DNA of 64,000 nucleotides from Aquabacterium sp. A3. GTDB lineage: Bacteria > Pseudomonadota > Gammaproteobacteria > Burkholderiales > Burkholderiaceae_C. Below, in pieces: positions 7,482 through 25,174 of the stretch (position 1 is the first letter of the stretch; every line of letters starts with the position of its first letter). Under the pieces are notes generated by a model, which saw only the letters and a list, made by a program, of their open reading frames with translations, searched no databases and had not been told where the DNA came from. The position numbers and the translations under genes are program-made. The stretch spans positions 1,488,001 to 1,552,000 of the forward strand of contig NZ_JBBPEV010000001.1 of the NCBI RefSeq assembly GCF_038069945.1, given 5' to 3'.

Positions 7482-7526
7482 GATGAGCGTCCCGATGAAA
7501 CTGCGGTCAGGGTGGTCAGATATGGG

Positions 7527-9185: not shown

Positions 9186-9207
9186 ATCCAACAACACAGA
9201 AATGGAA

Positions 9208-9294: not shown

Positions 9295-10503
9295 TCACTC
9301 GAAGAACACGGGCGAGGTGTTGGACGAACGCTTGGCCTGGCTGGAAGCGTTGTCGAACAGACCAGCACGGTCCAGGCCGCTGCTCAGTTCGGTGTCGATG
9401 GCATCGACCACGGCCTGGCCGTTGGCGGTGTGGCCGTACTTGTGCGAGGTGAACCAGAACTCGTAGCTGCCGTTCTTGGCGGTGGCGGTGCTGTTCACGG
9501 CGGGCTCGTAAGCGTGCACGCCGTTCACCTTCACGAAGCGCCATTTGCGATCGGCACGGGCGCCGCCGCTGCGGGTGGTCAGGTCAGGGGCGTTTTCCAG
9601 CGAGAGCACACCCAGGGCGAAGCCGCTGTTGCTCAGGCAGGCACGGGCGTTGCCGGTGCCAGAGCCTTCTTGCACATCGAACGAAGGCAGGCCGCTGTTG
9701 GCGATGCCGTAGTCGGCGGCCGTGGCAGGTGCCAGAGCGCCGCCATTAGCACCATCGCTGCCCACGTAGGTGTTCAGGAAAAACTGGTTGGACGAGGCCT
9801 GAGTGCCCGAGGTGGACACGCGGCGGCACACGGTCAGCAGGTCACCCTCGGCGCCCACGCCCAGCACGGCGTTGACGTTGACCTTGGCGGTGTTGAAGGC
9901 GTCCGACACGATGGAGGTGTACTGGGCGCGGGTGATGTTGGGCTGGCACTCGGGGGTGATGCTGTCCACGCCGCAGCTGGCCAGGCCTTGGGCGGCTTGC
10001 AGGGCGGTGTACAGGTCGTTGCTCACGGCCACGCCAAACACCTGGCTGAACGAGGCGGGGGTGGTGGCAGGCGACACCTCAAGGCCGGCGGCCAGCAGGT
10101 CGTCGGCCGAGAAGGCGGCGCCGTCGATGTCCAGGAAGCCGCCTTCCGACGAGCGGGCGCCGGTGAAGACGATGGCGCCAGGGGCGGACGCAGCGGGGTT
10201 GATGAAATCAGCGGTGTCGGTGCCGGCCGAGGTGGTGACGGCGGTGAACGAACCACCCGACACGTTGAAGGACACGGCGTCCACGCCGGGCAGGCCAGCG
10301 AAGTCGGTCGTGCACTTCACGGCGAACAGGTTGGAGCCGCTGCTCAGCTCGGTGGCGCTGCCACCGGCGCTGCCGCACATGGCGGTCAGGGCCGAACGGT
10401 AGTTGGACGAGGTGGCCGAGGCGCCAGCCAGGTACACGGTGTCGGCGTGGGCTTGGGCGGCCACCAGGGTGACGGCGGCCAGGGCGATCTTGGTGAATTT
10501 CAT
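9295..10503 (-). CDS. Secreted PstS-like (type 2 periplasmic-binding fold) protein
   Basis: This is a 402-aa secreted protein with a clear signal peptide (MKFTKIALAAVTLVAAQAHA). The start at ATG 10503 is set by CGGAG eight bases upstream; the frame stays open 31 codons further without a signal-like beginning. After cleavage it begins DTVYLAGASATS and contains STSGTQASSNQFF (~240), which resembles the ligand-binding loops of phosphate-binding PstS-type proteins. Several cysteine pairs are present (AMCGSAG/VKCTTD; SCGVDSITPEC; VCRRV/ARACLS). No ABC permease or ATPase genes are adjacent, so it is more likely a free secreted or surface protein than a transporter component. The fold is inferred from pattern only. 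Confidence 0.55.
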   Translation of the reverse strand: MKFTKIALAAVTLVAAQAHADTVYLAGASATSSNYRSALTAMCGSAGGSATELSSGSNLFAVKCTTDFAGLPGVDAVSFNVSGGSFTAVTTSAGTDTADFINPAASAPGAIVFTGARSSEGGFLDIDGAAFSADDLLAAGLEVSPATTPASFSQVFGVAVSNDLYTALQAAQGLASCGVDSITPECQPNITRAQYTSIVSDAFNTAKVNVNAVLGVGAEGDLLTVCRRVSTSGTQASSNQFFLNTYVGSDGANGGALAPATAADYGIANSGLPSFDVQEGSGTGNARACLSNSGFALGVLSLENAPDLTTRSGGARADRKWRFVKVNGVHAYEPAVNSTATAKNGSYEFWFTSHKYGHTANGQAVVDAIDTELSSGLDRAGLFDNASSQAKRSSNTSPVFFE

Positions 10504-10595: not shown

Positions 10596-11474
10596 TCAGG
10601 CCTTGCGGCGGCGGGCGGCGATGCCGGCCACGGCCAGGCCAGCGATCACCAGGGCATAGGTGCTGGGCTCGGGCACGGCAGGGGTCGGCACAGCGGCGCT
10701 CAGGACGCCGTTGGCCACGTCCAGGGTCACTTCATAGGCCAGGATGCGCTCGGCGGCGGTGCCATCCACGGCCCACAGGTAGGTGGCCATGTTGGCGAAG
10801 GTCTCGCCGCCCAGGTTGTTGAAATTGCGCCAGTTGTTGCCAAATGCATCACCAGCCATGGCGTAGCCGTTGGCACGGGTGGTGGCGCCATCGGCAGCCG
10901 TGAAGGTGTAGGCGCCGTTGGCGACGGTGGTGTGGGTGCCACGGCTGTTTTGCGGCGTGAAGATGTCGTTCTGCGCTGCAATCTGCTGGATGTTCGAGGC
11001 GTTGGTGGTGCTATTGAACAGCTGCGAAGGCAGCGGATCTTGCACACCCGTCACGATCGAACGCTTGTTGGTACCGAAGCCGGTGGTGTCGAAACCGGTG
11101 ACCACGAAACGCAGGTCAGCGGCGTCCGAGTTGGCCAGCAGGGTGTTCCAGGCGCCGGTCCAGTCGTTGGTGCCACCAAAGCTGGTGACGGTGCCGTCCA
11201 GGGTGATGGTGTTGTTGATGAAGTCCCACTTCATCGTGCCCACGGTTTCCGACAGCGAGGCAGCGTCGATGGCGGTGCCGTTGCCGGTGGCGCCGATCAG
11301 GTCGTTGATCGACAGGCCCAGATCGAACACGCCGGCCGTGGTGGTGCCACCGCGGTTGTCGTAGGCGATCATGATCAGCGAGCCGTTGCCGTTGGAGCCG
11401 CGCTCCAGGGCAGCGTTGGCAGCGCCCATGCCGGTGGCCAGGGCCACTGCGGCAGCGATGTATTGCAGTTTCAT
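10596..11474 (-). CDS. PEP-CTERM sorting-domain protein
   Basis: This is a 292-aa exported protein with an N-terminal signal peptide (MKLQYIAAAVALATGMGAANA). It has a C-terminal PEP-CTERM tag: VPEPSTYALVIAGLAVAGIA, then RRRKA. By family knowledge the tag is recognised by an exosortase, which cleaves it after membrane insertion and releases or anchors the protein at the surface; no exosortase lies in this window. The middle region is Asn/Thr/Gly-rich and I do not recognise it. ATG 11474 is chosen for GGAG eight bases upstream and the signal peptide. It sits 92 nt before the PstS-like gene on the same strand. Confidence 0.85.
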   Translation of the reverse strand: MKLQYIAAAVALATGMGAANAALERGSNGNGSLIMIAYDNRGGTTTAGVFDLGLSINDLIGATGNGTAIDAASLSETVGTMKWDFINNTITLDGTVTSFGGTNDWTGAWNTLLANSDAADLRFVVTGFDTTGFGTNKRSIVTGVQDPLPSQLFNSTTNASNIQQIAAQNDIFTPQNSRGTHTTVANGAYTFTAADGATTRANGYAMAGDAFGNNWRNFNNLGGETFANMATYLWAVDGTAAERILAYEVTLDVANGVLSAAVPTPAVPEPSTYALVIAGLAVAGIAARRRKA

Positions 11475-11804: not shown

Positions 11805-12731
11805 TCAGTTCAGCGGCAGCGGGTCGGGGGCACGCTCGATCAGCACGGGCGTGAGCGGGTGTTGCAGAGTGGCACCGCGCTGCTGCAGCCATTGCACGGC
11901 CTCAAAATGCCGGCCCAGTGCGGCGGCGTGCACCGCCGTCAGGCCATGCAAATCCGGCGCGTTGACGGGCACTTGCGCCTGGTCCAGCAGCCAGGCCATG
12001 GCCTCGATCTGGCCGGCGCGTGCGGCCTCGGCCAGCGCGTGGCGCCCTTCGCGGTTGAACTGCATCAGCTCGGCGCCGCCGGCCAGCAGGCTGCGCATCA
12101 CGCGCGCATGGCCACCACGGGCCGCCAGGTGCAAGGGCGCCTGCCCTGCGCCACTCCAGCGCAATGGGTCGGCCCCGGCGCGCAACAAGGCCTGCACCAC
12201 CAGCTCATGCCCCCCCAGGGCGGCAGCCCCCAGCGGGCTCAAGCCGTACAGGCCCTGCTGATCGGGCTGTGCACCCCGGCGCAGCAACTCGCTGACCACG
12301 CTCAACTGGCCTTGCCGCGCGGCCAGGGTCAGCAAGGTGGCCCCGTCACGATCGCGCTCGTTGACGGGCGCGTCGGTGCGGGCCAGGCCTTGCAACAGGC
12401 CTGCCCAGTCACCCTGGCGCGCCAGGGCCATCAATGCGGGCACCTCGCCGGTCAGCGGCGCCCAGTCGGAGGGCGTCCAAGGCCCACCCTTGGCCACGGC
12501 CGCAAACTCGGCGTCGTCCACCGGGCGGTCGCTGGACGATGGCAAGGCTGGTTGCGCAAACTCCAGCCAATCGTTCACATCGCGGCTGGCCATGGTGTCC
12601 ACGCGCCAGGGTGGCAACACCTGGCTCACCGCAGGTGCGCTCCAGCCACTCAAGGTCAGGCACAACAAGGCCGCAGGGAAGGCCGCACGCAAGGCCGCAC
12701 AAGAAAGATCGTCAAAGGGCTTGAAGGCCAT
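11805..12731 (-). CDS. Secreted ankyrin-repeat protein
   Basis: This 308-aa protein has a signal-peptide-like N-terminus (MAFKPFDDLS, hydrophobic ~11-36 ending SAPAVSQ). At ~120-290 are about five ankyrin repeats with the usual G-x-T-x-L-x-x-A-A pattern (DGATLLTLAARQG, GLSPLGAAALGG, GQAPLHLAARGG, GRHALAEAARAG, GLTAVHAAALG). Ankyrin repeats mediate protein-protein contacts; the partner is unknown. The ATG at 12731 lies 10 nt after the stop of the LuxR-type gene, so it probably belongs to the same transcript. The frame is open 22 codons further upstream, but that would overlap the preceding gene and bury the signal peptide. Confidence 0.75.
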   Translation of the reverse strand: MAFKPFDDLSCAALRAAFPAALLCLTLSGWSAPAVSQVLPPWRVDTMASRDVNDWLEFAQPALPSSSDRPVDDAEFAAVAKGGPWTPSDWAPLTGEVPALMALARQGDWAGLLQGLARTDAPVNERDRDGATLLTLAARQGQLSVVSELLRRGAQPDQQGLYGLSPLGAAALGGHELVVQALLRAGADPLRWSGAGQAPLHLAARGGHARVMRSLLAGGAELMQFNREGRHALAEAARAGQIEAMAWLLDQAQVPVNAPDLHGLTAVHAAALGRHFEAVQWLQQRGATLQHPLTPVLIERAPDPLPLN

Positions 12732-12741
12732 GTCGGGTTGC

Positions 12742-13581
12742 TCAATGTTGGGAGTCTCTGAACGCAGGTGCCGCGCCCAGCCCATCGCCCCAGGCATTGA
12801 TGCTCATGGCGATGGCCACGGCCTGGGCCCGGTTGGAGGCCCCCAGCTTGCGCAGGATCTTTTGCACGTGGTTCTTGACCGTCAGGGCGCTGATGCCCAG
12901 CTTGGCGCCGATGGCATGGTTGCTCAGGCCATCACGCACCCACATCAGGATCTCGCGCTCGCGCAGGGTGATGGGCGTTGCGGGGCGCGCAGTCGTTGGG
13001 GTGGGCGCAGGCGCGGGCGAAGGTGCACGCGCAGGCACCATTTGCCGCTCCGTCACGCACACACGCTGGTAGGCGGTGTGCAGGCACGGCAGCAGCATGT
13101 CCAACGCCAGGCCATGCTGGGCCGACAGCCGTTGCCCATGCCGGGCCAGCACAAAGAAGCTCTCCAGCTCGTCAGGGCGCCCCGGACGGGTGTGGCCATG
13201 CATCAGCACCTCGCTGTAGCCTGCGCCATGGAGGGCTCCCAACACTTCGTGCTGGGTAGCGTGGCTGCCCAGGCTCATGGTCATGGCCTGCTGGCGGGCG
13301 GCGTCCCACACGGTCACCAGGGGCTGCAACCAGGTGGGGGGAACCTCTTGCAGTTGGGCCACCGTGGCCTCCGGCAAGGGCCGGCTGTTGAACACGTCAA
13401 AGGCCAGGTCTTTGGCCTCGCGGTCGTAAAAGCCGCACAGCATCAGGTCGTGCGGCAACCAGCGCTGCAGATCGCCTTGTGTCCACACAAAGAACTGATG
13501 CCGGCGACACACCTGCGGGGCGGCCTCCATGATGCGCATCAGGCCTTCTGGGTGTGCAGCGTCGGTGAAGGTGGATGACAT
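12742..13581 (-). CDS. LuxR-family regulator resembling EpsA of PEP-CTERM/exosortase loci
   Basis: This 279-aa transcription factor has a C-terminal LuxR/GerE helix-turn-helix at ~205-262 (LREREILMWVRDGLSNHAIG, then LGISALTVKNHVQKILRKLG). The N-terminal ~185 residues have no phosphoreceiver Asp and look like the sensory region of the EpsA-type regulators found next to exosortase/EPS loci (for example RHQFFVWTQGDLQRWLPHD). An Ala/Pro-rich linker separates the halves. It lies downstream of the pseudopilin genes (30-nt gap) and upstream of the ankyrin gene, so it may regulate this region. No clear ribosome binding site marks ATG 13581. The EpsA assignment is by resemblance only. Confidence 0.75.
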   Translation of the reverse strand: MSSTFTDAAHPEGLMRIMEAAPQVCRRHQFFVWTQGDLQRWLPHDLMLCGFYDREAKDLAFDVFNSRPLPEATVAQLQEVPPTWLQPLVTVWDAARQQAMTMSLGSHATQHEVLGALHGAGYSEVLMHGHTRPGRPDELESFFVLARHGQRLSAQHGLALDMLLPCLHTAYQRVCVTERQMVPARAPSPAPAPTPTTARPATPITLREREILMWVRDGLSNHAIGAKLGISALTVKNHVQKILRKLGASNRAQAVAIAMSINAWGDGLGAAPAFRDSQH

Positions 13582-13610: not shown

Positions 13611-14093
13611 CTAGGGAGCGGTCGTGACGGTTTGTTGACGCGGTGCGGCAGGTGGCGGGTCTGCCTCGAAACGCCACTCGTCAAATCGCGCCACGCCCTT
13701 GGGCGCGCTCAGGGGCGTGAGTGCAGACACGCTGTAGACCCCACGTATGCCTTGCCCTTGGCGGATCAGCCCCCAGTCCTGCCCCGTCATCGGGTCGGGC
13801 CACACCTGGCGCAGGTGGCGCACCACCTGGCCGGTGCGCTCGTCGGCCAGCAAGTCGTTCAGGCTTTGCGGCCAGGGCGACTGACCGGTGCTCAGCGGCA
13901 CGGCCGCGTAGGCGCTGATGGCGCGGCGGATCTGCTCGCCCCGAAAGGCGTACTCCATCTCACGCTCACGCTGGGCTTGTTGGCGCCAGTGGGTGCTGGC
14001 CGCCATCAGCAACACACCACTGAGCGCCACCCAGCCCAGCAGCATCAGGTAGCTGAAGCCGCGCTGATCATGGCGGTGATCACCACGCGCCAT
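13611..14093 (-). CDS. Atypical minor pseudopilin lacking Glu5
   Basis: This 160-aa prepilin-like protein starts MARGDHRHDQRGFSYLMLLG. A prepilin-peptidase site (RG|FS) is followed by a ~20-residue hydrophobic helix. The Glu normally at mature position 5 is missing, as in GspK-type tip pseudopilins. The globular part contains YAFRGEQIRRAISAYAAVP and ends with an Ala/Pro tail. ATG 14093 overlaps the end of the preceding pseudopilin gene by 14 nt, with GGGGTG as a possible ribosome binding site. It is the last pseudopilin of the operon. By position and sequence it should be a minor or tip subunit, which is inference. Confidence 0.75.
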   Translation of the reverse strand: MARGDHRHDQRGFSYLMLLGWVALSGVLLMAASTHWRQQAQREREMEYAFRGEQIRRAISAYAAVPLSTGQSPWPQSLNDLLADERTGQVVRHLRQVWPDPMTGQDWGLIRQGQGIRGVYSVSALTPLSAPKGVARFDEWRFEADPPPAAPRQQTVTTAP

Positions 14094-14469
14094 ACGGCAC
14101 CCCGTTCTGCCCCCGACCGATCGCGCCACTGCGCACATCGGCCATGCCGCCAGGGATGGCGCTGTCGGCCGGGGGCGGCAGCATCTGCCAGCCATCGCGG
14201 CTGCCGGTGATGGGGTCTTCGGGGATGTGGCGCAGGTAGCCGGCCTGCACCAGTTGCTGCAAGGATTCGGGGTACTGACCGCGGTCGGCGGTGTATTTGT
14301 CGATGGCGTCACGCATCACATTGAGTGAGGTGCGCAAGGTGGCTTCCCGGGCGTTGTCCACCGTGCGCACATAGCGTGGCGCCACGATGCTGGCGAGCAG
14401 GCCGATGATGGCCAGCACCACGATCAACTCGATGAGGGTGAAGCCTTTGCGGCGATTCAGGCCTGGCAT
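14080..14469 (-). CDS. GspG-like pseudopilin
   Basis: This 129-aa type II/IV pseudopilin starts MPGLNRRKGFTLIELIVVLA. It has a short charged leader, the peptidase site KG|FTLIE with Glu5, and a long N-terminal helix. The globular part (RDAIDKYTADRGQYPESLQQ; PEDPITGSRDGW) follows the GspG pattern in which C-terminal residues bind calcium. It begins 4 nt after the previous pseudopilin's stop and overlaps the next gene. It is a second GspG-like subunit beside the one at 22339-22800. Confidence 0.85.
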   Translation of the reverse strand: MPGLNRRKGFTLIELIVVLAIIGLLASIVAPRYVRTVDNAREATLRTSLNVMRDAIDKYTADRGQYPESLQQLVQAGYLRHIPEDPITGSRDGWQMLPPPADSAIPGGMADVRSGAIGRGQNGVPYGAW

Positions 14470-14473
14470 GAGA

Positions 14474-14962
14474 TCACCACTGGCGGTAAGGCGTGCCGTC
14501 CAGGCCCATGCCTTCGGCCTGCGAGTACACGTCAAACACATCGGCCCCGGGTGCGGGCGCCTCGGGTGGGCTGGCGTAGGCGCGCAGGCCCCAGGTTTGT
14601 TCGGCCGGCACGGTGCGGTCGGCCAGCGGGTCGCGCGGCAGTCGCCGCAAAAAGTAGATGCGCGGTTTGGCCGGCTGGCTGATGTCGGGCACGCCCTCCA
14701 CCAAGGTGCGCAAGGTGGGCGGATAGCCCGTGTCGCCTTCCCGTTTTTCGATGCGGCCGTCGTCCCAGGCGGCCTTGTAGGCATCGATGGCGGTGCGCAG
14801 CGTTCGCAGGTTCTGCCGCAGTTCGGACTCTTGCGCACGGCGGTGCTGCAGGCTGGCCAGGGGCATGGCCGCACTGGCCAGGATGCCCACCAGCATCACC
14901 ACCACCACCATCTCGATGAGGGTGAAGCCCCGAGACACCATCGTGGGCGTGGCGGCAGGCAT
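14474..14962 (-). CDS. Type II secretion-like pseudopilin
   Basis: This 162-aa pseudopilin has leader MPAATPTMVSRG followed by FTLIEMVVVVMLVGILASA (Glu5 present). The globular region (AIDAYKAAWDDGRIEKREG; YPPTLRTLVEGVPD; IYFLRRLPRDPLAD) resembles GspG/GspH-type subunits. ATG 14962 is one base after the TGA of the secretin gene, indicating translational coupling. It is the first of three pseudopilin genes placed after the secretin. Confidence 0.85.
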   Translation of the reverse strand: MPAATPTMVSRGFTLIEMVVVVMLVGILASAAMPLASLQHRRAQESELRQNLRTLRTAIDAYKAAWDDGRIEKREGDTGYPPTLRTLVEGVPDISQPAKPRIYFLRRLPRDPLADRTVPAEQTWGLRAYASPPEAPAPGADVFDVYSQAEGMGLDGTPYRQW

Positions 14963-14963
14963 G

Positions 14964-17204
14964 TCAGCGGCCCTCGGACGCTGCCGACTCGGCCGCAGGG
15001 TCGGCAGGAGGGTTGGCATCAGGGTTGGCATCTGGATCGGGCGACTGCGCTGGCTCGCTCGCCTGGATGCGCACCCGCCACATCGCCGAGCCGTCTTCCA
15101 GCGCCAGTGCGCTGTCCATCGCCGGCGCGTCGGGCTTGACCTTGAGCATGATGGACTGCACGCCACGGGGTGGCACCTGCACCGGCACACGCGCCCCACC
15201 ACCAGCGGCTGGCGTTTCAAACACGGCCGTGTCCATCAGCAAGCCGGTGTCCAGCGGATCGTTGCCGTTGTTGCGCACAGTGACCTGCAGCAGGTTGCCC
15301 GCCATCACCTGCTCGGGCCCGGACAGGCTGACCACGGCGCCATCGGACGCATCGGCCGCAGCGGTCGACGGCACGGCGCGTGGGTTGAATCGTGCGCCCG
15401 CCCCACCACGACCCGGCGCCATGCCGGCCACGCCAGCGCTCAAGGCCATGGGCCGCGCACCCGGCTGGGCCTCGGTGCCCGAGGGCAGCAGGCCGGCAGC
15501 CACCGGTGGCTGCACCAGGTTGCGCACGATGCGGGGGGTGACCAGCAAGACGATCTCGGTGCGCTCGACACTGTCGTTGCGGCTGCCAAAGAGGCGCCCG
15601 GCCACGGGCAGGTCGTGCAACACGGGCAGCCCGGCCGCATTGCGGATGTCGCGGTCGTTGATGAGCCCGGCCAGGATCTGGGTTTCGCCATCGCGCAGCC
15701 GCAAAGTGGTGCTGGCCTGGCGCGTGCCCACCTGGTAGGCGATGGAGCCCTGGGGCCCGGTGATCTCGCGGGTGATGCTGCTGACCTCCAGCGCCACCTT
15801 GATGGTGACGTCGTTGTCAAGCTGCACCTGGGGTTCGATCTCCAGCTTGAGGCCCACGTCCAGGTAACTGACAGAGGCCGACACGCCCACGTTGGCCGTG
15901 GAGGTGGTGGTGAACACGGGTAATTTTTCGCCCAGCAGCACCTTGGCTTTTTCGCGGTTGCGGGCGCGGATCTTGGGGTTGGCCAGCAGGTTGGTGGCGC
16001 CGGTGGAGGCCTTGAGGCTGGCAATGGCCAGGGGGTTGGTGCCGTACCAGCGCAGATCGCTGCTGGACGTGATGGGCGCCGTGCTGCCCGGCACGCCGTA
16101 GTTGAACAGCTCGGGCCACTTCAGCCCCACCTGATCGAGCTTGCTGGACGAGACCTCCATCACCTCCAGCTCCAGCATGACCTCAGGCTCGGCCAGGTCC
16201 ACGCTTTGCACCAATTGCTCTACCAGGCGCATGACCTCGGGCGTGTCACGCACCACCAGCAGGTTGAGGCGCTCATCCACATAGATGTCTCGCGTCTTGG
16301 CCACGGTGCGCACCATTTGTTGCACCTGCTTGGGGTCGGCATTGACCAGGTAGAACGTGCGGGTGACGGTGTCGAGCAGGTCGCGCGTCTTCTGCTGCGT
16401 GTTGGGAAACACCAGCACGGTGTTCTCGTTGAGCAGCTTGTGGCCCAGTTGCTGGGTGCTGGTGATCAGGCGCAAGGCGTCGTCCACCGTGGTCTTGCGC
16501 AGGTACATGGTCACGCGGCTGTCGCCACGCACATCCTTGTCGAACACGAAGTTCACGTCGGCGGCCTTGGCCAGGGCCTCGAACACCGTGCGCAAGGGGG
16601 CCTCCCGAAACTCCAAGGTGATGACCCGTTGCGCGGCCTTGAGGCCCACACCGGCTTGCTGGCGGGTTTGCGCCTCGCGCAGGCTTTCGATGCGGCTGAG
16701 CAGGGTGCGGGCCTGCGGTTGCTGAGGCGCCTCGCCCAGCACAGCGCGCAGGGCCAGCTCGGCCTGGCCCCATTGCTGACGGGTCATGGCCTGCTCGGCC
16801 TCGGCGATCAGGGCTTGCACACGCTGCTGGCGCTGAACGTCGGCCTGCAGGCTGGCCGTGCGCGGGTGCTGCGGCGCCAGGGCGATGAGGCGATCCAGCG
16901 CGACGCGGGCCTCGTCGCTGCGTCCCTGTGCGCGCGCCACCTCCACCAGCCGGGCCAGTTCATTGACGGTGGTTTCGCGTTGCTGGAACCAGGCCATGCG
17001 CAGGGGCGAATCCTCGGGGTGCGACTGCAGCGCCGCGTTGAGGTGCGCCAGCGCGGCCTCGTGCTGTCCGGCCTGCGCCATCTGCTGCGACTCGCGGATG
17101 GCCGGGGTGGTGCACCCCAGCAGGCTGAGCGTGATGGCCACCAGCAGCAGGGGGTGGCCTGGTGACACCAGTCGCCGTGCAAGGGTTGAGAGCTTGAAGG
17201 TCAT
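14964..17204 (-). CDS. gspD: Type II secretion secretin (GspD/MshL-like) lipoprotein with C-terminal Ig/cohesin-like domain
   Basis: This 746-aa outer-membrane pore protein has a lipoprotein signal with lipobox LLGC (Cys31), then TPR-like helices (~40-175). An N0/STN domain (~195-265: EFREAPLRTVFEALAKAADV) and N1-like repeats follow, then the secretin core (~335-562) with its signature PVLHDLPVAGRLFG and TPRIV. Unusually, residues ~623-715 form an extra beta-rich domain (VVSLSGPEQVMAGNLLQVTV) resembling Ig/cohesin modules, then an Asp/Pro/Ala-rich tail. The lipoprotein form suggests it reaches the outer membrane without a separate pilotin. ATG 17204 was chosen because the signal peptide begins there; its start overlaps the preceding gene by 4 nt. 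Confidence 0.92.
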   Translation of the reverse strand: MTFKLSTLARRLVSPGHPLLLVAITLSLLGCTTPAIRESQQMAQAGQHEAALAHLNAALQSHPEDSPLRMAWFQQRETTVNELARLVEVARAQGRSDEARVALDRLIALAPQHPRTASLQADVQRQQRVQALIAEAEQAMTRQQWGQAELALRAVLGEAPQQPQARTLLSRIESLREAQTRQQAGVGLKAAQRVITLEFREAPLRTVFEALAKAADVNFVFDKDVRGDSRVTMYLRKTTVDDALRLITSTQQLGHKLLNENTVLVFPNTQQKTRDLLDTVTRTFYLVNADPKQVQQMVRTVAKTRDIYVDERLNLLVVRDTPEVMRLVEQLVQSVDLAEPEVMLELEVMEVSSSKLDQVGLKWPELFNYGVPGSTAPITSSSDLRWYGTNPLAIASLKASTGATNLLANPKIRARNREKAKVLLGEKLPVFTTTSTANVGVSASVSYLDVGLKLEIEPQVQLDNDVTIKVALEVSSITREITGPQGSIAYQVGTRQASTTLRLRDGETQILAGLINDRDIRNAAGLPVLHDLPVAGRLFGSRNDSVERTEIVLLVTPRIVRNLVQPPVAAGLLPSGTEAQPGARPMALSAGVAGMAPGRGGAGARFNPRAVPSTAAADASDGAVVSLSGPEQVMAGNLLQVTVRNNGNDPLDTGLLMDTAVFETPAAGGGARVPVQVPPRGVQSIMLKVKPDAPAMDSALALEDGSAMWRVRIQASEPAQSPDPDANPDANPPADPAAESAASEGR

Positions 17205-17764
17205 CGCAAGGAAACCGTCTGAACCTGGTCCAGCGGCAGGTAATTGAGTTGCATCACACGGGCCTGGATGCGCTCGACGCGCCAGGTGCTGTCGATCACG
17301 TCGCCAGGGCGAACCACCCACACCCCTTGAGGGCCTTGCACCACGGCGCGCTGCACCGCAGGGGCGCCGTTCGCAGGCTCGTCGTCCAGCCGCCCCACCC
17401 AGTGGTGCGGAAAGCGCGGCGCCATGGGCGGTGGTGGCGCCACACGCGCCACCTGGCGGGGCGCGGGCGGTGGGGGCGGTGGCTCGGCCAGCAACCAGGT
17501 GGGGGGCTGATGCGGGCTGACGGCGGCGGGCGTGTGGCCCACGTACATCGCCAAGGTCTGCTGTGCGGCCTTCAGGCCTTCCTTGGCATCGCCACCCTGG
17601 GCCCGAACGGCAGGGGCCATGCGGGGCGCGCGCTGATCGGGGGGCGCCAGCAACGAGGCCTCATCGGCGTCGGCTTCATCCGCGGATTGCCACTGCAACC
17701 AGGCCGCCATGGCCAGCACCAGGGCCAACACGGCCAGCAGGCGGGGGTTCATGGGCGCACTCAC
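17201..17764 (-). CDS. GspC/PilP/MshK-like periplasmic connector
   Basis: This 187-aa protein has one N-terminal membrane anchor (NPRLLAVLALVLAMAAW), a long Pro/Ala-rich periplasmic linker (with a run of seven prolines at ~101) and a small C-terminal domain (QGVWVVRPGDVIDSTWRVER). That domain resembles the homology region by which GspC and PilP contact the secretin. GTG 17764 is preferred over ATG 17752 because AGGAGG lies 7 nt before it and it forms a GTGA overlap with the previous stop. The last codons overlap the secretin start. The family call is by architecture and position, not strong similarity. Confidence 0.7.
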   Translation of the reverse strand: MSAPMNPRLLAVLALVLAMAAWLQWQSADEADADEASLLAPPDQRAPRMAPAVRAQGGDAKEGLKAAQQTLAMYVGHTPAAVSPHQPPTWLLAEPPPPPPAPRQVARVAPPPPMAPRFPHHWVGRLDDEPANGAPAVQRAVVQGPQGVWVVRPGDVIDSTWRVERIQARVMQLNYLPLDQVQTVSLR

Positions 17765-18348
17765 GGACGCACCTCCTGACCACGCCACCACAGCGACAGA
17801 CGCACCTGGGCCTTGACGCCATCGCTGCGGGGATCAGCACGCTGCACATCCAGGCCATCGATGCCCAGGCCAGGCACATGCTGCAAGGCCTGCACCCAGG
17901 CACGCACCGTGTCGTAAGGGCCCTCCACCGGCAGTTGCATGCGCTGCCGCCACAGGCCGTGGCCATCGGCGGTGGTGGGCACCCAGGTCTCTTGCTGGGC
18001 CTGTACCTGCAGCGAGGGCAACTGCAGGCCCAGCGTCTGAGCGCTGCGCCACACCTGCGATTGCAAGGTCATGCGCTGGGTGGCCGGGGGCAAGCGCTGC
18101 CACAAGGCCTGCCAGGCCAGGGTGGGTGTCAAGGCGGGCGTGATCTCGGCGCTGCCAGAGGGCTGACGATCGCGGCTGGCCTGGCGCAGGCCCTCACGCA
18201 CCTGATCGGCCTCCTGCTGTGCGCGGTCCAGATCGGTCTGCAGGCGGGCCATGTCGTGCTGCAAGTACACGGCCAGGCCCATGGCGAGCAAGCCCAGGGC
18301 ACCCGGCAGGCCCAGGCGCTGCACCACGCGGGGCAGGCGGTGCATCAT
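17761..18348 (-). CDS. PilO/GspM-like inner-membrane assembly protein
   Basis: This 195-aa protein has a short cytoplasmic start (MMHRLPRVVQRLG), one transmembrane helix (~16-34) and a coiled coil (~36-65, MARLQTDLDRAQQEADQVRE). A periplasmic ferredoxin-like domain follows (VEGPYDTVRAWVQALQHVPG, then LGIDGLDVQRAD). This matches PilO, MshJ and GspM, which form the inner-membrane platform with PilN/GspL. ATG 18348 overlaps the upstream stop as ATGA. Confidence 0.75.
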   Translation of the reverse strand: MMHRLPRVVQRLGLPGALGLLAMGLAVYLQHDMARLQTDLDRAQQEADQVREGLRQASRDRQPSGSAEITPALTPTLAWQALWQRLPPATQRMTLQSQVWRSAQTLGLQLPSLQVQAQQETWVPTTADGHGLWRQRMQLPVEGPYDTVRAWVQALQHVPGLGIDGLDVQRADPRSDGVKAQVRLSLWWRGQEVRP

Positions 18349-18995
18349 GGCGCGCCTCCACCCGTGATCGGTGGGCTCATGGGCACCTCGGCCTGCACCC
18401 GCCACACCAGCGTGCCCCACCGGGTGTCCACCGGCTCGGACAAACGCTCACGGGACTGGAGTTCTGCCTGCGGCCCCAAGGTGGACAACCACACCAGCGG
18501 GCTGTCGTCGTCGCGGCTCCAGGCCTGCAAACGCACCACGGGCCGCGCCGAGGCGGGCGGCACGGGCGTCCACGATGCCAGGTCCAGCGCCCACTGCGTG
18601 AGCACCAGGCGCTGCTCGGCGGCAGCCAGGGCGGCACCATCCATCTGGGCAGGCCAATCCACCGCCAGCCAGGCGGCCAGCTGCGCCGCACGCCGCCAAC
18701 CGGCATCGTCCAGCACGGGCACCCCAGTTGCCGCGGCCACCGATGCGTCCCCCACCTGCGGGTTCACCGGCGTGTTGACCATGGCCTGTTCACGCTCCAG
18801 GCTCTGCCGTGCGCGCATCAAGCGGGCCACCTCGTCATCGGCCACCTGCAGCGCCATGTGGGCCTGCTGGTGCTGCTGCCAGGCATGCAGGCCCAGGGCC
18901 AGGCCCAGCGCCAGCACGGCCCAGCCCCACACCGAGGAGCGCCAGCGCGGGCCCACCACGTCCAGCTCATCCAGCCACGCGTGCTTCTGGCTCAT
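18345..18995 (-). CDS. PilN/GspL C-terminal-like inner-membrane protein
   Basis: This 216-aa protein has an N-terminal cytoplasmic segment (MSQKHAWLDELDVVGPRWRS), one transmembrane helix (~24-40, VWGWAVLALGLALGLHAW) and a coiled-coil stretch (~45-75). A periplasmic region ends in a Gly/Pro tail. The arrangement matches PilN or the C-terminal half of GspL. It overlaps both neighbours by four bases (ATGA). The sequence itself is divergent, so the family call rests on architecture and operon position. Confidence 0.65.
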   Translation of the reverse strand: MSQKHAWLDELDVVGPRWRSSVWGWAVLALGLALGLHAWQQHQQAHMALQVADDEVARLMRARQSLEREQAMVNTPVNPQVGDASVAAATGVPVLDDAGWRRAAQLAAWLAVDWPAQMDGAALAAAEQRLVLTQWALDLASWTPVPPASARPVVRLQAWSRDDDSPLVWLSTLGPQAELQSRERLSEPVDTRWGTLVWRVQAEVPMSPPITGGGAP

Positions 18996-19642
18996 GCCGG
19001 GCCCCCTGTGCCGCCTTCGGTCCCGGCAGGCTCCGACCACACCGCGCCCAGGCGCCAGGCCTCATCGGCCGGGTGGCCAGCGGTGGGCCCGCGCTGCCAC
19101 TGCACATGGGTGCGCCAATCGCCATCACTCCAGGCCTGCTCGATGGTGGTGGCGCCATCGGCCGGTGCAGGCAAGGCGCCCGCCATCTCAAGGCCCCACC
19201 AGGGCCCCATGCGGTCGATGCGCACATGGTGCTGGGCCGCCAGGCTTTGGACGCCCTCCACCAGGGCGCGCGGCATGGCCGTCACCAGGTGCAACTGAGC
19301 GCCACCGGGTGCGGCATGCACCTGGCGCACCACCCACTCGTCGGCCAGTTGAGACTCGTCCAGCTCCAGCACGGTCAGCCAGGTTTGCAAGGCGTGCTGC
19401 CAGCCCTCGGCCGGGCTCAAGGTGGGGCTCAGGGCCTGGGCATGCACCCAGCGTGAGGCCACACCCAGTTCGTACACCGCCCCAGCCTGCGCGGCAAACT
19501 CGGCCTGCACCTGCGCCAGGGCCTCGTCCACCGTGGCGCAGCCCACGCCCACCCGCCAATGGCGCGGACGCCAGTGCGTTTGAGCGCGTCGCCACAGGGT
19601 GGGCGCCATGCGGCGCCAGTGCAAGGTGTCGCCCATGATCAT
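18992..19642 (-). CDS. Possible GspL/PilM/MshI-like cytoplasmic component
   Basis: This 216-aa protein has no signal peptide or membrane helix. It sits between the GspE ATPase and the PilN-like gene, where GspL's cytoplasmic half or PilM/MshI would be expected. The segment VTAMPRALVEGVQSLAAQHH followed by VRIDRMGPWW recalls the actin-like fold of that group, but the protein is only about two thirds of the usual PilM length. Together with the next gene it would look like a GspL split in two. ATG 19642 overlaps the gspE stop (ATGA). I cannot assign it firmly. Confidence 0.55.
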   Translation of the reverse strand: MIMGDTLHWRRMAPTLWRRAQTHWRPRHWRVGVGCATVDEALAQVQAEFAAQAGAVYELGVASRWVHAQALSPTLSPAEGWQHALQTWLTVLELDESQLADEWVVRQVHAAPGGAQLHLVTAMPRALVEGVQSLAAQHHVRIDRMGPWWGLEMAGALPAPADGATTIEQAWSDGDWRTHVQWQRGPTAGHPADEAWRLGAVWSEPAGTEGGTGGPA

Positions 19643-21204
19643 TCCACCAGGGTGACGCGGTTGAGTTCGTCCACCGAGGTCTCGCCGCGCAACACACAGG
19701 CCAGCGCAGCTTCGCGCAGGTTGCGCATGCCGTGCGCCCGCGCATGGGCCTTGAGCTGCGTCAGCGGAGCCCGCGCCACGATCATGTCGCGCAGGGCATC
19801 GTCCATCAGCAGCACCTCGGTGATGGCCTTGCGGCCCCGGTAGCCGGTGCCCCGGCAGGCCGGGCAGCCCACGGCGCGCATGAAGCGCCCTTGCGCGTCC
19901 AGCGGCACCTGGGCTTGCTGACGCTCGGCAGGCGTCAGCCCATGGGGCTGCGCGCAGTGGGGGCACAAGCGCCGCAACAAGCGCTGCGCCACCACCCCGT
20001 TCAACGCCGAGACCATGTTGTACAGGTCCACCCCCATGTGCATGAAGCGGCCCACCACATCGAACACATTGTTGGCGTGGATGGTGGACAGCACCAGGTG
20101 GCCCGTGAGTGCGGCCTGCGAGGCGATCTGGGCGGTCTCCGCATCGCGGATCTCACCCACCATGACGCGGTCGGGATCGTGACGCAGGATGCTGCGCAAA
20201 CCACGCGCGAAGGTCAGGCCCTTCTTTTCGTTCACCGGGATCTGCACCACACCGGGCAGTTGGTACTCCACCGGGTCTTCGATGGTGATGATCTTGTCGG
20301 CGCCGTCATTGATCTCTTGCACCACGGCATACAGCGTGGTGGTCTTGCCGCTGCCGGTGGGCCCAGTGACCAGCAACAGGCCATAGGGTTTGCGGGCCAG
20401 GCGGCGCACCACCTGGGCATCGTCGTGCTCCAGCCCCAGGCCTTCCAGACTCAAAGCCTGGGCCTCGGTGGCCAGGCGGCTGCGGTCCAGGATGCGCAGC
20501 ACGGCGTCTTCGCCGTAACTGGACGGCATGATCGACACCCGGAAGTCCACATCGCGCGGCGCGGCATCGGCCGAGGCCTGCACGCGGCGCTTGAATCGGC
20601 CGTCTTGCGGCAGGCGGCGCTCGCCGATGTCCAGCTCGGCCAGCACCTTCAAGCGCGACACCAGTTGCTCGGCCACCTCGCGCGAGCCGACATCGCCCAC
20701 GGCCACCATCACACCGTCCAGCCGGTGGCGGATGACCATGCCCGTGGCGGTGGACTCCAGGTGCAGGTCGCTGGCCTGCGCCTTCAGGGCATCAAACAAG
20801 GTGGCGTCCAGCAACTTCACCACCGGGCTGGCCGCGCGGCTCAAGGTGTCGACCGACAGCGCCGCCAGGGCCCCGTCCACGGCCTCATCCACCGTGGGGC
20901 CCACGGCCTCGTCCAGCACACCCCGGGCCTCGAAGGCCTGCTCGCCTTCGGCCAGGCAGGCGCTCAGCGTGGCATCGTCCACCTGCGTCCAGCGCACCGC
21001 CTGCCCGGTGGCGCGGGCCACGGCCTCGCGCACCACAGGGCTGGGCTCGGTGGCGGCCAGGGCCTGCCACACACCCTGGCACCGCCCCACCACCACGCGC
21101 AAGCGCAGGGCCTTGCTCAGGGGCCACACGCCCCAATCGGGCACCAGCGCAGGGGCCTCGACGGGCGGCATCAGGCCGGACACGCTGTGCAGCACCGCGC
21201 TCAT
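19639..21204 (-). CDS. gspE: Type II secretion/type IV pilus assembly ATPase GspE
   Basis: This 521-aa cytoplasmic hexameric ATPase should power pseudopilus assembly. Visible motifs are Walker A GPTGSGKT (281-288), Asp box ITIEDPVEYQ (~306-315), Walker B VMVGEIRDAETA (347-358) and His box GHLVLSTIHANN (368-379). Two CxxC pairs (CPHC 414-417 and CPAC ~455) form the zinc site of GspE/PilB rather than PilT. The N-terminal ~130 residues are short and divergent compared with the usual MshE/GspE N-domain. ATG 21204 overlaps the gspF stop by four bases. Confidence 0.96.
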   Translation of the reverse strand: MSAVLHSVSGLMPPVEAPALVPDWGVWPLSKALRLRVVVGRCQGVWQALAATEPSPVVREAVARATGQAVRWTQVDDATLSACLAEGEQAFEARGVLDEAVGPTVDEAVDGALAALSVDTLSRAASPVVKLLDATLFDALKAQASDLHLESTATGMVIRHRLDGVMVAVGDVGSREVAEQLVSRLKVLAELDIGERRLPQDGRFKRRVQASADAAPRDVDFRVSIMPSSYGEDAVLRILDRSRLATEAQALSLEGLGLEHDDAQVVRRLARKPYGLLLVTGPTGSGKTTTLYAVVQEINDGADKIITIEDPVEYQLPGVVQIPVNEKKGLTFARGLRSILRHDPDRVMVGEIRDAETAQIASQAALTGHLVLSTIHANNVFDVVGRFMHMGVDLYNMVSALNGVVAQRLLRRLCPHCAQPHGLTPAERQQAQVPLDAQGRFMRAVGCPACRGTGYRGRKAITEVLLMDDALRDMIVARAPLTQLKAHARAHGMRNLREAALACVLRGETSVDELNRVTLVE

Positions 21205-22328
21205 TGGATCTGCTCCGCCACCTGGAAGATGGGCAGGTACATCAGCACCACGATGCCGCCAATCACCACGCCCATCACCAGCATCAGCACCGGGTTGACC
21301 ACCTTGCCCACCCAGTCGGTGAAGCGGGCCAACTCTTCGTCGTAGAAGTGCGCGGCGCGCTCCAGCATGGGGCCCAGCTCGCCGGTTTGTTCGCCCACGC
21401 GCACCATGCGCACCGACACGGGCGTGACCAGCTGCTCGGCCTGCAAGGCCTCGGACAGGCGCTGGCCTTCGGCCACACGCTGGCGCGCCCGGTCCAGGGC
21501 TGGCCGCAGCACCGCGCCCATCAGCTCGGCCGACGAGCCCAGGGCCGACACCACCGGCACCCCGGCCTGCAGCAGCAGCCCCAGCGTGCGGTACAGCGAG
21601 GCCAGCTCGATCAAGCGCAGGCGCTCACCCACCACCGGCGCTTGCCACAGGCGCGCGCCCACCCACTGCCGCGGGGCGGGCTGGCGCGCAGCCCACACCG
21701 CCAGCGCCAGCACCACCACCAGGCCCATCAAGGCCTGCATCGGGTGCTCGCCCAGCCCCCGGCCCAGTTGCAGCAACAGGCCCGACAACCAGGGCAGCTC
21801 ACCGCCCATGTCATCGTAGATCTCGGCAAAGCGCGGCACCACGAACACCGTCAGGAAGACGATCACCAGCAGGCTGGCGCCGATCAGGATCACGGGGTAG
21901 ATGGCCGCGCCCACCAGCTTGTCGCGCAGGCCCTGCACCCAGGCCAGGTAGGCCGCATGCTGGCGCAAGGCCTGGGTGAGCTGCCCGGTGCGCTGCGCGG
22001 CCTCGATCGAGGCCACCAGCAAGGTGGTGAAGGCCTCAGGCTGCACGCGCATGGCCTGGGCCAGCGTCTGGCCTTCCGACAAGGCCACACACAAGCGCGC
22101 CAGCACCAACGCCACGCTGGCATCGCCTTCTTTTTCCTTCAGGGTCTGCAAGGCCTCATAGAGCGGAATGCCCGCGTCCAGCAGCACGGCCAGCTCCTGG
22201 CAGAACAGACGCCGGGGAAACTCGCGCTGACGCTGCATCAGCCGTGCGGTCCACGGCGCCGAAGTCTGGGCAGACGGGCCCGTCTGCGTGGACTGCAGTC
22301 GGCGTGTGGATGTGGCCAAGGGGTTCAT
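21201..22328 (-). CDS. gspF: Type II secretion inner-membrane platform protein GspF
   Basis: This 375-aa polytopic protein has the family's two repeated cytoplasmic helical domains. The first, ~38-140, contains FCQELAVLLDAGIPLYEALQ; the second, ~245-345, contains ASLYRTLGLLLQAGVPVVSA and GEQTGELGPML. Each is followed by hydrophobic segments, including the C-terminal GKVVNPVLMLVMGVVIGGIV. It anchors the GspE ATPase at the membrane. It starts 10 nt after gspG and overlaps gspE by four bases. Confidence 0.95.
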   Translation of the reverse strand: MNPLATSTRRLQSTQTGPSAQTSAPWTARLMQRQREFPRRLFCQELAVLLDAGIPLYEALQTLKEKEGDASVALVLARLCVALSEGQTLAQAMRVQPEAFTTLLVASIEAAQRTGQLTQALRQHAAYLAWVQGLRDKLVGAAIYPVILIGASLLVIVFLTVFVVPRFAEIYDDMGGELPWLSGLLLQLGRGLGEHPMQALMGLVVVLALAVWAARQPAPRQWVGARLWQAPVVGERLRLIELASLYRTLGLLLQAGVPVVSALGSSAELMGAVLRPALDRARQRVAEGQRLSEALQAEQLVTPVSVRMVRVGEQTGELGPMLERAAHFYDEELARFTDWVGKVVNPVLMLVMGVVIGGIVVLMYLPIFQVAEQIQ

Positions 22329-22338
22329 GCCCGCACCC

Positions 22339-22800
22339 TCACCAATTGCTCACATCGGCGTTTTCGCCATCACCGCCTTCGCGGCCATCCTTGCCCAGCG
22401 AGTACAGGTCGTACTCGCCATGCTGGCCGGGTTGACGGTATTGGTAATCACGGCCCCAGGGGTCTTGGGGCGGGGCCTTGCGCAGGTAGGGGCCCCACCA
22501 GCGGTTCTCGTCGGCCGGCTTGGTCCACAGCGCATCCAGGCCCTGCTCGTTGCTGGGGTAACGGCCGGTGTCCAGGCGATACTGGTCCAGGGCCTTGCCC
22601 AGCGCATCGATCTGGGCGGCCGCCGTTTTGGATTCAGACTTGCCGATCTGCTTGAAAAACTGCGGGCCCACGTAGCCCGCCAGCAAGCCGATGATGACCA
22701 GCACCACCAGCAGTTCCAGCAAGGTGAAGCCCCGCTGGGCCTGTCCAACAGGCGCGAGTTGGCCCCGCACCCGGCCACGGGGCGCTGCACACACGAACAT
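22339..22800 (-). CDS. gspG: Major pseudopilin GspG
   Basis: This 153-aa major pseudopilin opens the operon. A 23-residue leader ends at QRG|FTLLELLVVLV, with Glu5 present. The conserved GspG features follow: ALDQYRLDTGRYPSNEQGLD, then a WWGPYLRKAPPQDPWG stretch and the C-terminal calcium-site region (YSLGKDGREGGDGENADVSNW region). AAGGAA seven bases upstream supports ATG 22800. In GspG the calcium stabilises the pseudopilus. No prepilin peptidase gene is in the window, so processing must come from elsewhere. Confidence 0.95.
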   Translation of the reverse strand: MFVCAAPRGRVRGQLAPVGQAQRGFTLLELLVVLVIIGLLAGYVGPQFFKQIGKSESKTAAAQIDALGKALDQYRLDTGRYPSNEQGLDALWTKPADENRWWGPYLRKAPPQDPWGRDYQYRQPGQHGEYDLYSLGKDGREGGDGENADVSNW

Positions 22801-24928: not shown

Positions 24929-25174
24929 TCACTTCTTGCGGCGACGTGCCACCACCACGCCCACCACAGCCACACCAGCGATCAGCATGGCGATGGTGTC
25001 GGCTTCAGGCACGGGCGACACCGCAGAGTTCACATTGCTGTTGAGCAGTGCGTTGTCGTTCGCATTTGCAAACGCGATCGGGTTGAAATTGTCTTTCTTG
25101 TCTTTGGGCGGCGCGTCTGCCGATGCCGACACGGCCACCAAAGAGGCCAGGGCCCATACGATCAACTGTTTCAT
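24929..25174 (-). CDS. Small PEP-CTERM-type protein
   Basis: This 81-aa exported protein has a signal peptide (MKQLIVWALASLVAVSASA) and a short Asn/Ala-rich middle (NPIAFANANDNALLNSNVN). Its C-terminal sorting tag is VPEADTIAMLIAGVAVVGVV, then ARRRKK. The tag is the PEADT variant of PEP-CTERM. The mature part is only about 30 residues, so it may be a structural peptide or a degenerate relative of larger proteins. GGAAGG about eight bases upstream supports ATG 25174. A strong terminator follows. Confidence 0.8.
   Translation of the reverse strand: MKQLIVWALASLVAVSASADAPPKDKKDNFNPIAFANANDNALLNSNVNSAVSPVPEADTIAMLIAGVAVVGVVVARRRKK

What the first reader, a model, noticed from the sequence alone, without database searches (positions are those of the whole stretch)
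13611..22800. Non-canonical type II secretion / pilus-like operon with split GspL and post-secretin pseudopilins
Eleven minus-strand genes, mostly joined by ATGA/GTGA overlaps, run gspG-F-E, GspL/PilM-like, PilN-like, PilO/GspM-like, GspC/PilP-like, secretin, then three pseudopilins. Canonical T2SS order is C-D-E-F-G-H-I-J-K-L-M. Here gspG opens the operon, GspL looks split into a soluble and a membrane gene as in MSHA or type IV pili, and no GspH/I/J set or prepilin peptidase is present. The operon is flanked by a LuxR/EpsA-like gene and secreted proteins, so it may be a dedicated secretion system for this surface region.
Basis: partly seen in the sequence, partly recalled or inferred. Interest (0 to 1): 0.7.

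Follow-up and report, generated by a model that had tools for sequence, protein, structure and literature searches.

The report
T2SS-like operon, "secretion system X"
An intact, widely shared but apparently unstudied cousin of the type II secretion machine, found in many betaproteobacteria and often sitting beside the same set of surface-protein genes, one of which is predicted to fold like a phosphate-binding protein and is a plausible cargo.

Summary
In detail: eleven intact minus-strand genes (13611-22800) encode GspG, GspF, GspE, PilM/GspL-, PilN-, PilO/GspM- and (weakly) PilP/GspC-like proteins, a lipoprotein secretin and three further pseudopilin-like proteins. It is not a degenerate gsp operon: the genome has a canonical gsp locus elsewhere, and the operon's ATPase and platform protein form their own clades. 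Nor is it unique: detected genes keep the order in 82 of 84 fully spanned loci, and a marker gene occurs in 113 of 300 genomes of the order. NCBI already names some homologues of one component 'secretion system X ...'; my searches listed no paper on it. New, as far as I searched: in part of the loci the operon is followed by an EpsA-type regulator, a PEP-CTERM protein, a protein with a predicted PstS (phosphate-binding) fold and a two-partner secretion system; in the window's genus and one other family a TonB/ExbBD set follows. Best mechanism: a PilD-dependent, pseudopilus-driven exporter with locally encoded cargo, the PstS-fold protein being the best candidate (precedent: a DING protein exported by Hxc T2SS). 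The machine class is well supported; secretion and cargo are inferred.

The parts
22339..22800 (-). gspG: major pseudopilin
   Evidence: TIGR01710 183.2 bits (cut-off 88.85), T2SSG PF08334 1.7e-43; GFTLLE prepilin site
21201..22328 (-). gspF: inner-membrane platform protein
   Evidence: T2SSF 5.1e-49; TIGR02120 258 bits, below its cut-off 424; own clade
19639..21204 (-). gspE: assembly ATPase with Walker A (GPTGSGKT, residue 281) and CPHC (414) / CPAC (447)
   Evidence: T2SSE 1.5e-123; TIGR02533 477.5 bits, below cut-off 630; motifs; own clade
18992..19642 (-). L position: soluble PilM / GspL-cytoplasmic-domain-like protein, 216 aa
18345..18995 (-). N position: PilN-like membrane protein
   Evidence: PF05137 PilN in 18 of 23 aligned members at E up to 0.1, best 1.5e-6; window copy itself has no hit
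17761..18348 (-). O position: PilO / GspM-like membrane protein
   Evidence: T2SSM_b in 13 of 20 members, PilO in 7 of 20; profile hits PilO 3jc8 at 4e-8
17201..17764 (-). P position: PilP / GspC-like protein, proline-rich; some homologues named 'secretion system X translation initiation factor' at NCBI
   Evidence: PDB PilP 2ivw only E 0.02; GTG start with GTGA overlap
14964..17204 (-). secretin: lipobox (LLGC), TPRs, STN/N0, N1, secretin core, C-terminal extension
   Evidence: lipobox Cys invariant in 12 of 12 aligned; closest PDB PilQ 4av2 2.3e-43
14474..14962 (-). p1: pseudopilin with Glu5
   Evidence: N_methyl 2e-6; GspG 43.6 bits, below cut-off
14080..14469 (-). p2: pseudopilin with Glu5
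   Evidence: N_methyl 1.2e-9; GspG 65.5 bits, below cut-off
13611..14093 (-). p3: prepilin-like protein without Glu5 (GFSYLML), possible tip subunit
   Evidence: 0 of 23 aligned members has Glu at +5, by eye; no family hit
12742..13581 (-). EpsA-type LuxR regulator, 29 bp after p3
   Evidence: TIGR03020 170.4 bits (cut-off 170); gap
11805..12731 (-). ankyrin-repeat protein with signal-like N-terminus, 10 bp after EpsA
   Evidence: Ank_2 7.6e-25; start
10596..11474 (-). PEP-CTERM protein
   Evidence: PF07589 8.4e-9
9295..10503 (-). exported protein with predicted PstS fold; candidate cargo
7527..9197 (-). ShlB/FhaC-type two-partner secretion transporter
   Evidence: PF03865 4.9e-25, POTRA_2 1.5e-14
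1..7481 (-). N-terminal part of a 3916-aa TpsA exoprotein (runs off the window)
   Evidence: TPS domain 1.9e-17, ESPR 1.2e-7; DUF3739 in the part outside the window

Best explanation
The operon encodes a type II-secretion-class machine of a separate lineage, the one NCBI labels 'secretion system X'. A GspE-like ATPase and GspF-like platform, held by PilM/N/O/P-like proteins, polymerise a short pseudopilus of GspG plus two Glu5 pseudopilins, with p3 (no Glu5) as likely tip. The prepilins are cut by the genome's PilD, encoded with the type IV pilus genes. The secretin carries its own lipid anchor and a TPR region, so it may pilot itself to the outer membrane. The pseudopilus pushes folded periplasmic proteins out through the secretin. 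In this genome and part of its relatives the operon is followed by an EpsA-type regulator and genes for exported surface proteins, among which the PstS-fold protein is the likeliest cargo; the giant TpsA leaves by its own FhaC partner. SHOWN here: gene content, order, intactness, separate clades, conservation, co-occurrence. PREDICTED: the folds of the L protein and of the PstS-fold protein. INFERRED: secretion as the activity, PilD dependence, self-piloting, tip role of p3, cargo identity, shared regulation.
For: Families and folds. Own clades for ATPase and GspF. Conservation: detected genes keep the order in 82 of 84 fully spanned loci, all eleven detected in 61 of 84; marker P in 113 of 300 genomes of the order. 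Canonical gsp, MSHA-like and T4P loci lie elsewhere in the genome. One prepilin peptidase found. NCBI label. Cargo candidate: predicted PstS fold; R228/S232/G233 in 38 of 38 and T234 in 37 of 38, aligned with E. coli PstS R135/S139/G140/T141 (that these bind phosphate is recalled); its gene is in 29 of 113 genomes with P and 2 of 187 without (Fisher p 9e-12, kinship not corrected), within 12 kb of P in 15 of 31. Precedent: Psp/DING, encoded beside and exported mainly by the Hxc T2SS, PMC2225411 (abstract read).
Against: No secretion datum exists. The profile of the PstS-fold protein was built only from copies next to this operon, so the co-occurrence is partly ascertained; that searches drew the same 300 genomes is assumed from equal settings and handles. 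In 31 of 56 named loci with enough downstream sequence neither EpsA, the PstS-fold gene nor fhaC follows, so the machine must have other cargo there. The secretin and L-P genes look more like type IV pilus than T2SS parts; the T4P locus of this genome has the same M-N-O-P-Q order, by eye. PstS-fold proteins can be purely periplasmic. E. coli PstS D56 and S38 did not align with conserved residues.
Confidence: 0.6

Rival explanations
1. The operon assembles a short surface pilus for adhesion or biofilm (type IV pilus-like, as MSHA) rather than secreting proteins.
For: PilM/N/O/P/Q-like parts in the order of the genome's own pilMNOPQ (by eye); secretin nearest PilQ in NCBIfam and PDB; adhesin-like TPS neighbours.
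Against: The major pilin is a GspG with the T2SSG domain over its cut-off; no retraction-type ATPase among the eleven genes, though two shorter T2SSE-family ATPases lie about 37 kb away, not examined; MSHA-like and T4P loci already exist in the genome.
Confidence: 0.2
2. The machine serves the surface module as a whole (PEP-CTERM sorting, TPS exoprotein, Ton/porin set) as an assembly or anchoring device; the PstS-fold protein is a ligand-capturing partner and not cargo.
For: Recurring succession EpsA, (Ank), PEP-CTERM, PstS-fold, FhaC, then TpsA and ExbB/ExbD/TonB/porin; three exosortases in the genome.
Against: 31 of 56 named loci lack EpsA, PstS-fold and FhaC downstream; the PstS-fold gene lies far from P or on another contig in 11 of 31 genomes (contig breaks may hide nearness) and without P in 2 of 31.
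Confidence: 0.13
3. It is a degenerate or diverged duplicate of the canonical gsp system.
For: A canonical gsp locus is present; several parts score below curated cut-offs.
Against: All frames open, overlaps and ATPase motifs kept; separate clades; secretin in 32 of 37 same-genus genomes.
Confidence: 0.02
4. It is a DNA-uptake or other type IV filament machine of unrelated function.
For: Type IV filament machines include DNA-uptake systems (title and passages of PMC6668835).
Against: No competence-type gene among the neighbours scanned; GspG-type major pilin.
Confidence: 0.05

Closest known systems
'Secretion system X' as named in NCBI records (Nitrosospira, Nitrosovibrio)
   Same: Among the 120 listed homologues of P (of 361 found) 8 bear the name 'secretion system X translation initiation factor'; Nitrosospira loci have the same operon order. 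I recall a SEED subsystem 'Predicted secretion system X'.
   Different: Only a database name, and 'translation initiation factor' looks like a misnomer for a PilP/GspC-like proline-rich protein (one listed homologue is called PilP). No paper in the library holds the phrase variants searched.
Canonical T2SS (gsp; E. coli K-12 gspC-O)
   Same: GspG, GspF, GspE, secretin, GspL/M-like and possibly C-like parts; PilD-type processing expected
   Different: Order G-F-E-L-N-O-P-D-p1-p2-p3; GspL role in two genes; no gspH-K over cut-off; lipoprotein TPR secretin; separate ATPase and GspF clades
Geobacteraceae Pul/Oxp 'atypical T2SS' (PulG, OxpG, TklG; secretes OmpB)
   Same: Atypical T2SS with two or three pseudopilins (PMC3543383, passages); its gene order is similar as I recall it
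   Different: Sequences could not be fetched here, so homology is untested; cargo there is a multicopper oxidase
Hxc T2SS with DING/Psp cargo (Pseudomonas fluorescens SBW25, PMC2225411, abstract)
   Same: A PstS-like exoprotein encoded beside a T2SS
   Different: Relation of Hxc to this lineage untested; cargo link here untested
Type IVa pilus PilMNOPQ and MSHA
   Same: PilM/N/O/P/Q-like set, same order as in the genome's own T4P locus
   Different: GspG-type major subunit, no retraction motor among the eleven genes, own ATPase clade

Membership tests
Type II secretion system (canonical) | GspG major pseudopilin over curated cut-off | tested here: met
   183.2 vs 88.85 bits
Type II secretion system (canonical) | GspE, GspF, GspD over curated cut-offs | tested here: not met
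   477.5/630; 258/424; 146.6/351; the genome's canonical copies pass
Type II secretion system (canonical) | Minor pseudopilins H, I, J, K over curated cut-offs | tested here: not met
   p1, p2 below cut-offs, p3 no hit
Type II secretion system (canonical) | ATPase within the GspE clade | tested here: not met
   separate clade, 35 rows, SH-aLRT 100, quick tree
Type II secretion system (canonical) | Secretion of folded periplasmic proteins | not testable with these tools
   needs exoproteome of mutants
Type IVa pilus | PilN- and PilO-like platform proteins | tested here: met
   N: PilN in 18 of 23; O: PilO in 7 of 20 and T2SSM_b in 13 of 20; PilO 3jc8 4e-8
Type IVa pilus | PilM- and PilP-like proteins | tested here: inconclusive
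Type IVa pilus | PilB-clade ATPase and PilA-type major pilin | tested here: not met
'Secretion system X' (NCBI name) | Homologue of the P protein that bears the name, in the same operon order | tested here: met
Geobacter Pul/Oxp system | Homology and synteny of the components | not tested
   no Geobacter locus could be reached; none among the 80 loci kept
PstS phosphate-binding proteins (neighbour 9295-10503) | PstS fold (predicted model) | tested here: met
PstS phosphate-binding proteins (neighbour 9295-10503) | Phosphate ligand residues | tested here: inconclusive
   R and SGT motif conserved; S38 and D56 equivalents not established

The most novel reading that the evidence does not exclude
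Betaproteobacteria carry a distinct class of type IV filament machine, separate from T2SS, MSHA and T4P, that in part of the lineages works together with one recurring surface module: an EpsA-type regulator, PEP-CTERM protein, PstS-fold capture protein, a giant TPS exoprotein and a dedicated Ton system with porin, forming one phosphate- or ligand-gathering cell-surface organ.
Probability: 0.2. Interest if true: 0.75.

Novelty: new variant of a known kind. Interest (0 to 1): 0.5.

Why it matters
A secretion-class machine whose marker is in over a third of sampled genomes of an abundant environmental order (113 of 300) has a database name but, in what my searches listed, no study. Its chimeric make-up (GspG on a PilMNOP/PilQ-like frame) bears on how type II secretion and type IV pili diverged, and the recurring neighbourhood gives a concrete cargo to test, the PstS-fold protein.

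Tried and rejected
Degenerate duplicate: rejected. Canonical T2SS: rejected as membership. RHS-repeat or Tc-like proteins as a general cargo: a crude motif count flagged 7 of 121 loci; RHS repeats were found in 51 of 300 genomes (match list cut short), and in the listed part lie, by eye, within about 16 kb of P in three genomes (G049, G133, G258); kept as an observation. Pfam gave nothing useful on the L protein, so its fold was predicted. Literature on the operon or on the linked module; nothing on it in the rows listed (full lists were longer; open-licence PMC papers only). Outside the order: the secretin profile at E 1e-60 hit 9 of 276 genomes of the class, 7 of them outside the order.

Weak points and dropped rows: ORF starts in relatives are mechanical; trees are quick, unrooted, with SH-aLRT only. 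From the ATPase tree I left out two duplicate rows of this operon type (L197, L210) and two divergent orphans (L009, L211), and the two rearranged loci L158 and L172 gave no row; the PilB and MshE labels did not each form one clade. Reference labels came from own-genome neighbours, E. coli annotation and, for relatives, length and N-terminus by eye. The order count looked for upstream and downstream genes only on the expected side; one search repeats it without that limit. TpsA, ExbB-like, TonB-like and porin-like genes in relatives were recognised by eye.
Full report
Setting. The window is G000:C1:1488001-1552000 of a 3.83-Mb, 28-contig genome; the window is 67.5% GC. The genus is most likely Aquabacterium: protein clusters whose longest contig has the same length as contigs of two same-genus genomes used here (149,654 and 546,011 bases) are named Aquabacterium commune and Aquabacterium sp.. 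This is an inference from contig lengths.

Same genome. Six GspE/PilB-class ATPases score better than 1e-80. One belongs to a canonical gsp locus with GspG, K, L, D, E, F over curated cut-offs and a GspJ-like ORF below; C, H, I and N were not checked by family and the M-position ORF had no hit. Another lies in an MSHA-like locus (by eye; MshE-type c-di-GMP domain over cut-off). A third is PilB (834.8 bits, cut-off 675.65) beside a pilC-type gene and the only prepilin peptidase found. Two more are orphans. A pilMNOPQ-like operon lies elsewhere (by eye).

Phylogeny. In a quick tree of 66 ATPases the 35 of this operon type are one side of a branch (SH-aLRT 100), apart from GspE (7 rows, 99) and from the PilB and MshE rows. 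The same holds for 28 of 51 GspF-type proteins (100). Neither tree is rooted, so they do not say which system is oldest.

Conservation. The secretin is found at E up to 1e-40 in 43 of 61 genomes: 32 of 37 of the genus and 11 of 24 others; nine genus genomes carry a second copy 40-43% identical to the window's. The 80 loci kept include Nitrosomonas, Nitrosospira, Thiobacillus, Rhodoferax, Hydrogenophaga, Variovorax, Massilia, Zoogloea, Accumulibacter, Sideroxydans and Aquabacterium, and some MAGs labelled only Gammaproteobacteria or Proteobacteria. Of 121 loci, 84 span the whole operon. With gene sides left free, 82 of 84 keep the order of all detected genes and 61 show all eleven. Two Accumulibacter loci (L158, L172) have G-F-E after the pseudopilins. 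Of the rest, most miss the fast-evolving L or N; three have no pseudopilin after the secretin, and one has only secretin and pseudopilins. The P marker is in 113 of 300 genomes of the order and 58 of 140 genera.

Name. Of the 120 listed homologues of P, 8 are called 'secretion system X translation initiation factor' by NCBI, one 'Tfp pilus assembly protein PilP' by JGI, many 'hypothetical protein' or nothing. I recall a SEED subsystem 'Predicted secretion system X'; that is recall. No paper in the library holds the four variants of the phrase. Denise et al. [quoted passage not shown]

Neighbourhood. Downstream come EpsA (29 bp after p3), an ankyrin protein, a PEP-CTERM protein, the 9295-10503 protein, an FhaC transporter and a 3916-aa TpsA; beyond the window follow DUF2341/laminin-G-ExbB, two ExbD, TonB and Porin_5. 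Among loci with 7.5 kb downstream, EpsA, PstS-fold and FhaC are all found in the window, in 14 of 17 genus loci and 18 of 56 named loci; EpsA alone in 2 and 7, EpsA with PstS-fold in 1 and 0, none in 0 and 31; the one other-family locus with that much room had none, while L081 of another family, with slightly less room, has all three. Of 12 relatives whose next stretch was fetched (11 of the genus, one of another family), 12 have a 3,460-4,256-aa ORF there (some cut by the fetch edge, one on an inverted stretch) and 11 a DUF2341-ExbB-like ORF, by eye. The genome has three exosortases over cut-off.

Mechanism. From the parts, an ATPase-driven pseudopilus on a PilMNOP-type frame feeding a lipidated secretin is the straightforward reading. 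A DING protein (PstS-like) encoded beside and exported mainly by the Hxc T2SS in P. fluorescens SBW25 (PMC2225411, abstract) is the precedent for the cargo. The Geobacteraceae Pul system (PMC3543383, passages) is another atypical T2SS with two or three pseudopilins; whether it is the same lineage was not tested.

Verdict. Real, intact and widespread; non-canonical; already named in databases but, in what my searches listed, unstudied. The machine class is well supported, the cargo is a hypothesis. Interest is moderate.

Noticed in passing
L078, L084, L169, L075, L120: In some relatives the operon lies near RHS-repeat proteins (L078, L084, L169) or Tc-complex-like genes (L075 on the opposite strand, L120).
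   Followed up: partly
L158, L172 (Accumulibacter): The G-F-E block stands after the pseudopilins instead of before L.
   Followed up: partly
window 1-9197 and G000:C1:1478683-1488000 (L022): TPS exoprotein of 3916 aa with DUF3739, followed by a DUF2341/laminin-G-ExbB fusion, two ExbD, TonB and a Porin_5: a possible dedicated Ton system.
   Followed up: partly
L008 and L009 (own genome; wider stretches L018, L019): Two orphan GspE/PilB-class ATPases without pilus genes recognised nearby by eye; seven rows including L008 form one clade across the order.
   Followed up: no
G000:C1:1462392-1464313: Two shorter T2SSE-family ATPases, perhaps PilT/PilU, about 37 kb from the operon.
   Followed up: no
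P protein, 17201-17764: The NCBI name 'translation initiation factor' for this family looks like a misnomer, perhaps from the proline-rich region.
   Followed up: no
G256:C143, G064, G073: Some genomes show two matches of the PstS-fold protein.
   Followed up: no
window 24929-25174: A second, small PEP-CTERM gene on the other side of the operon; PEP-CTERM-like ORFs at a similar place in several genus loci.
   Followed up: no
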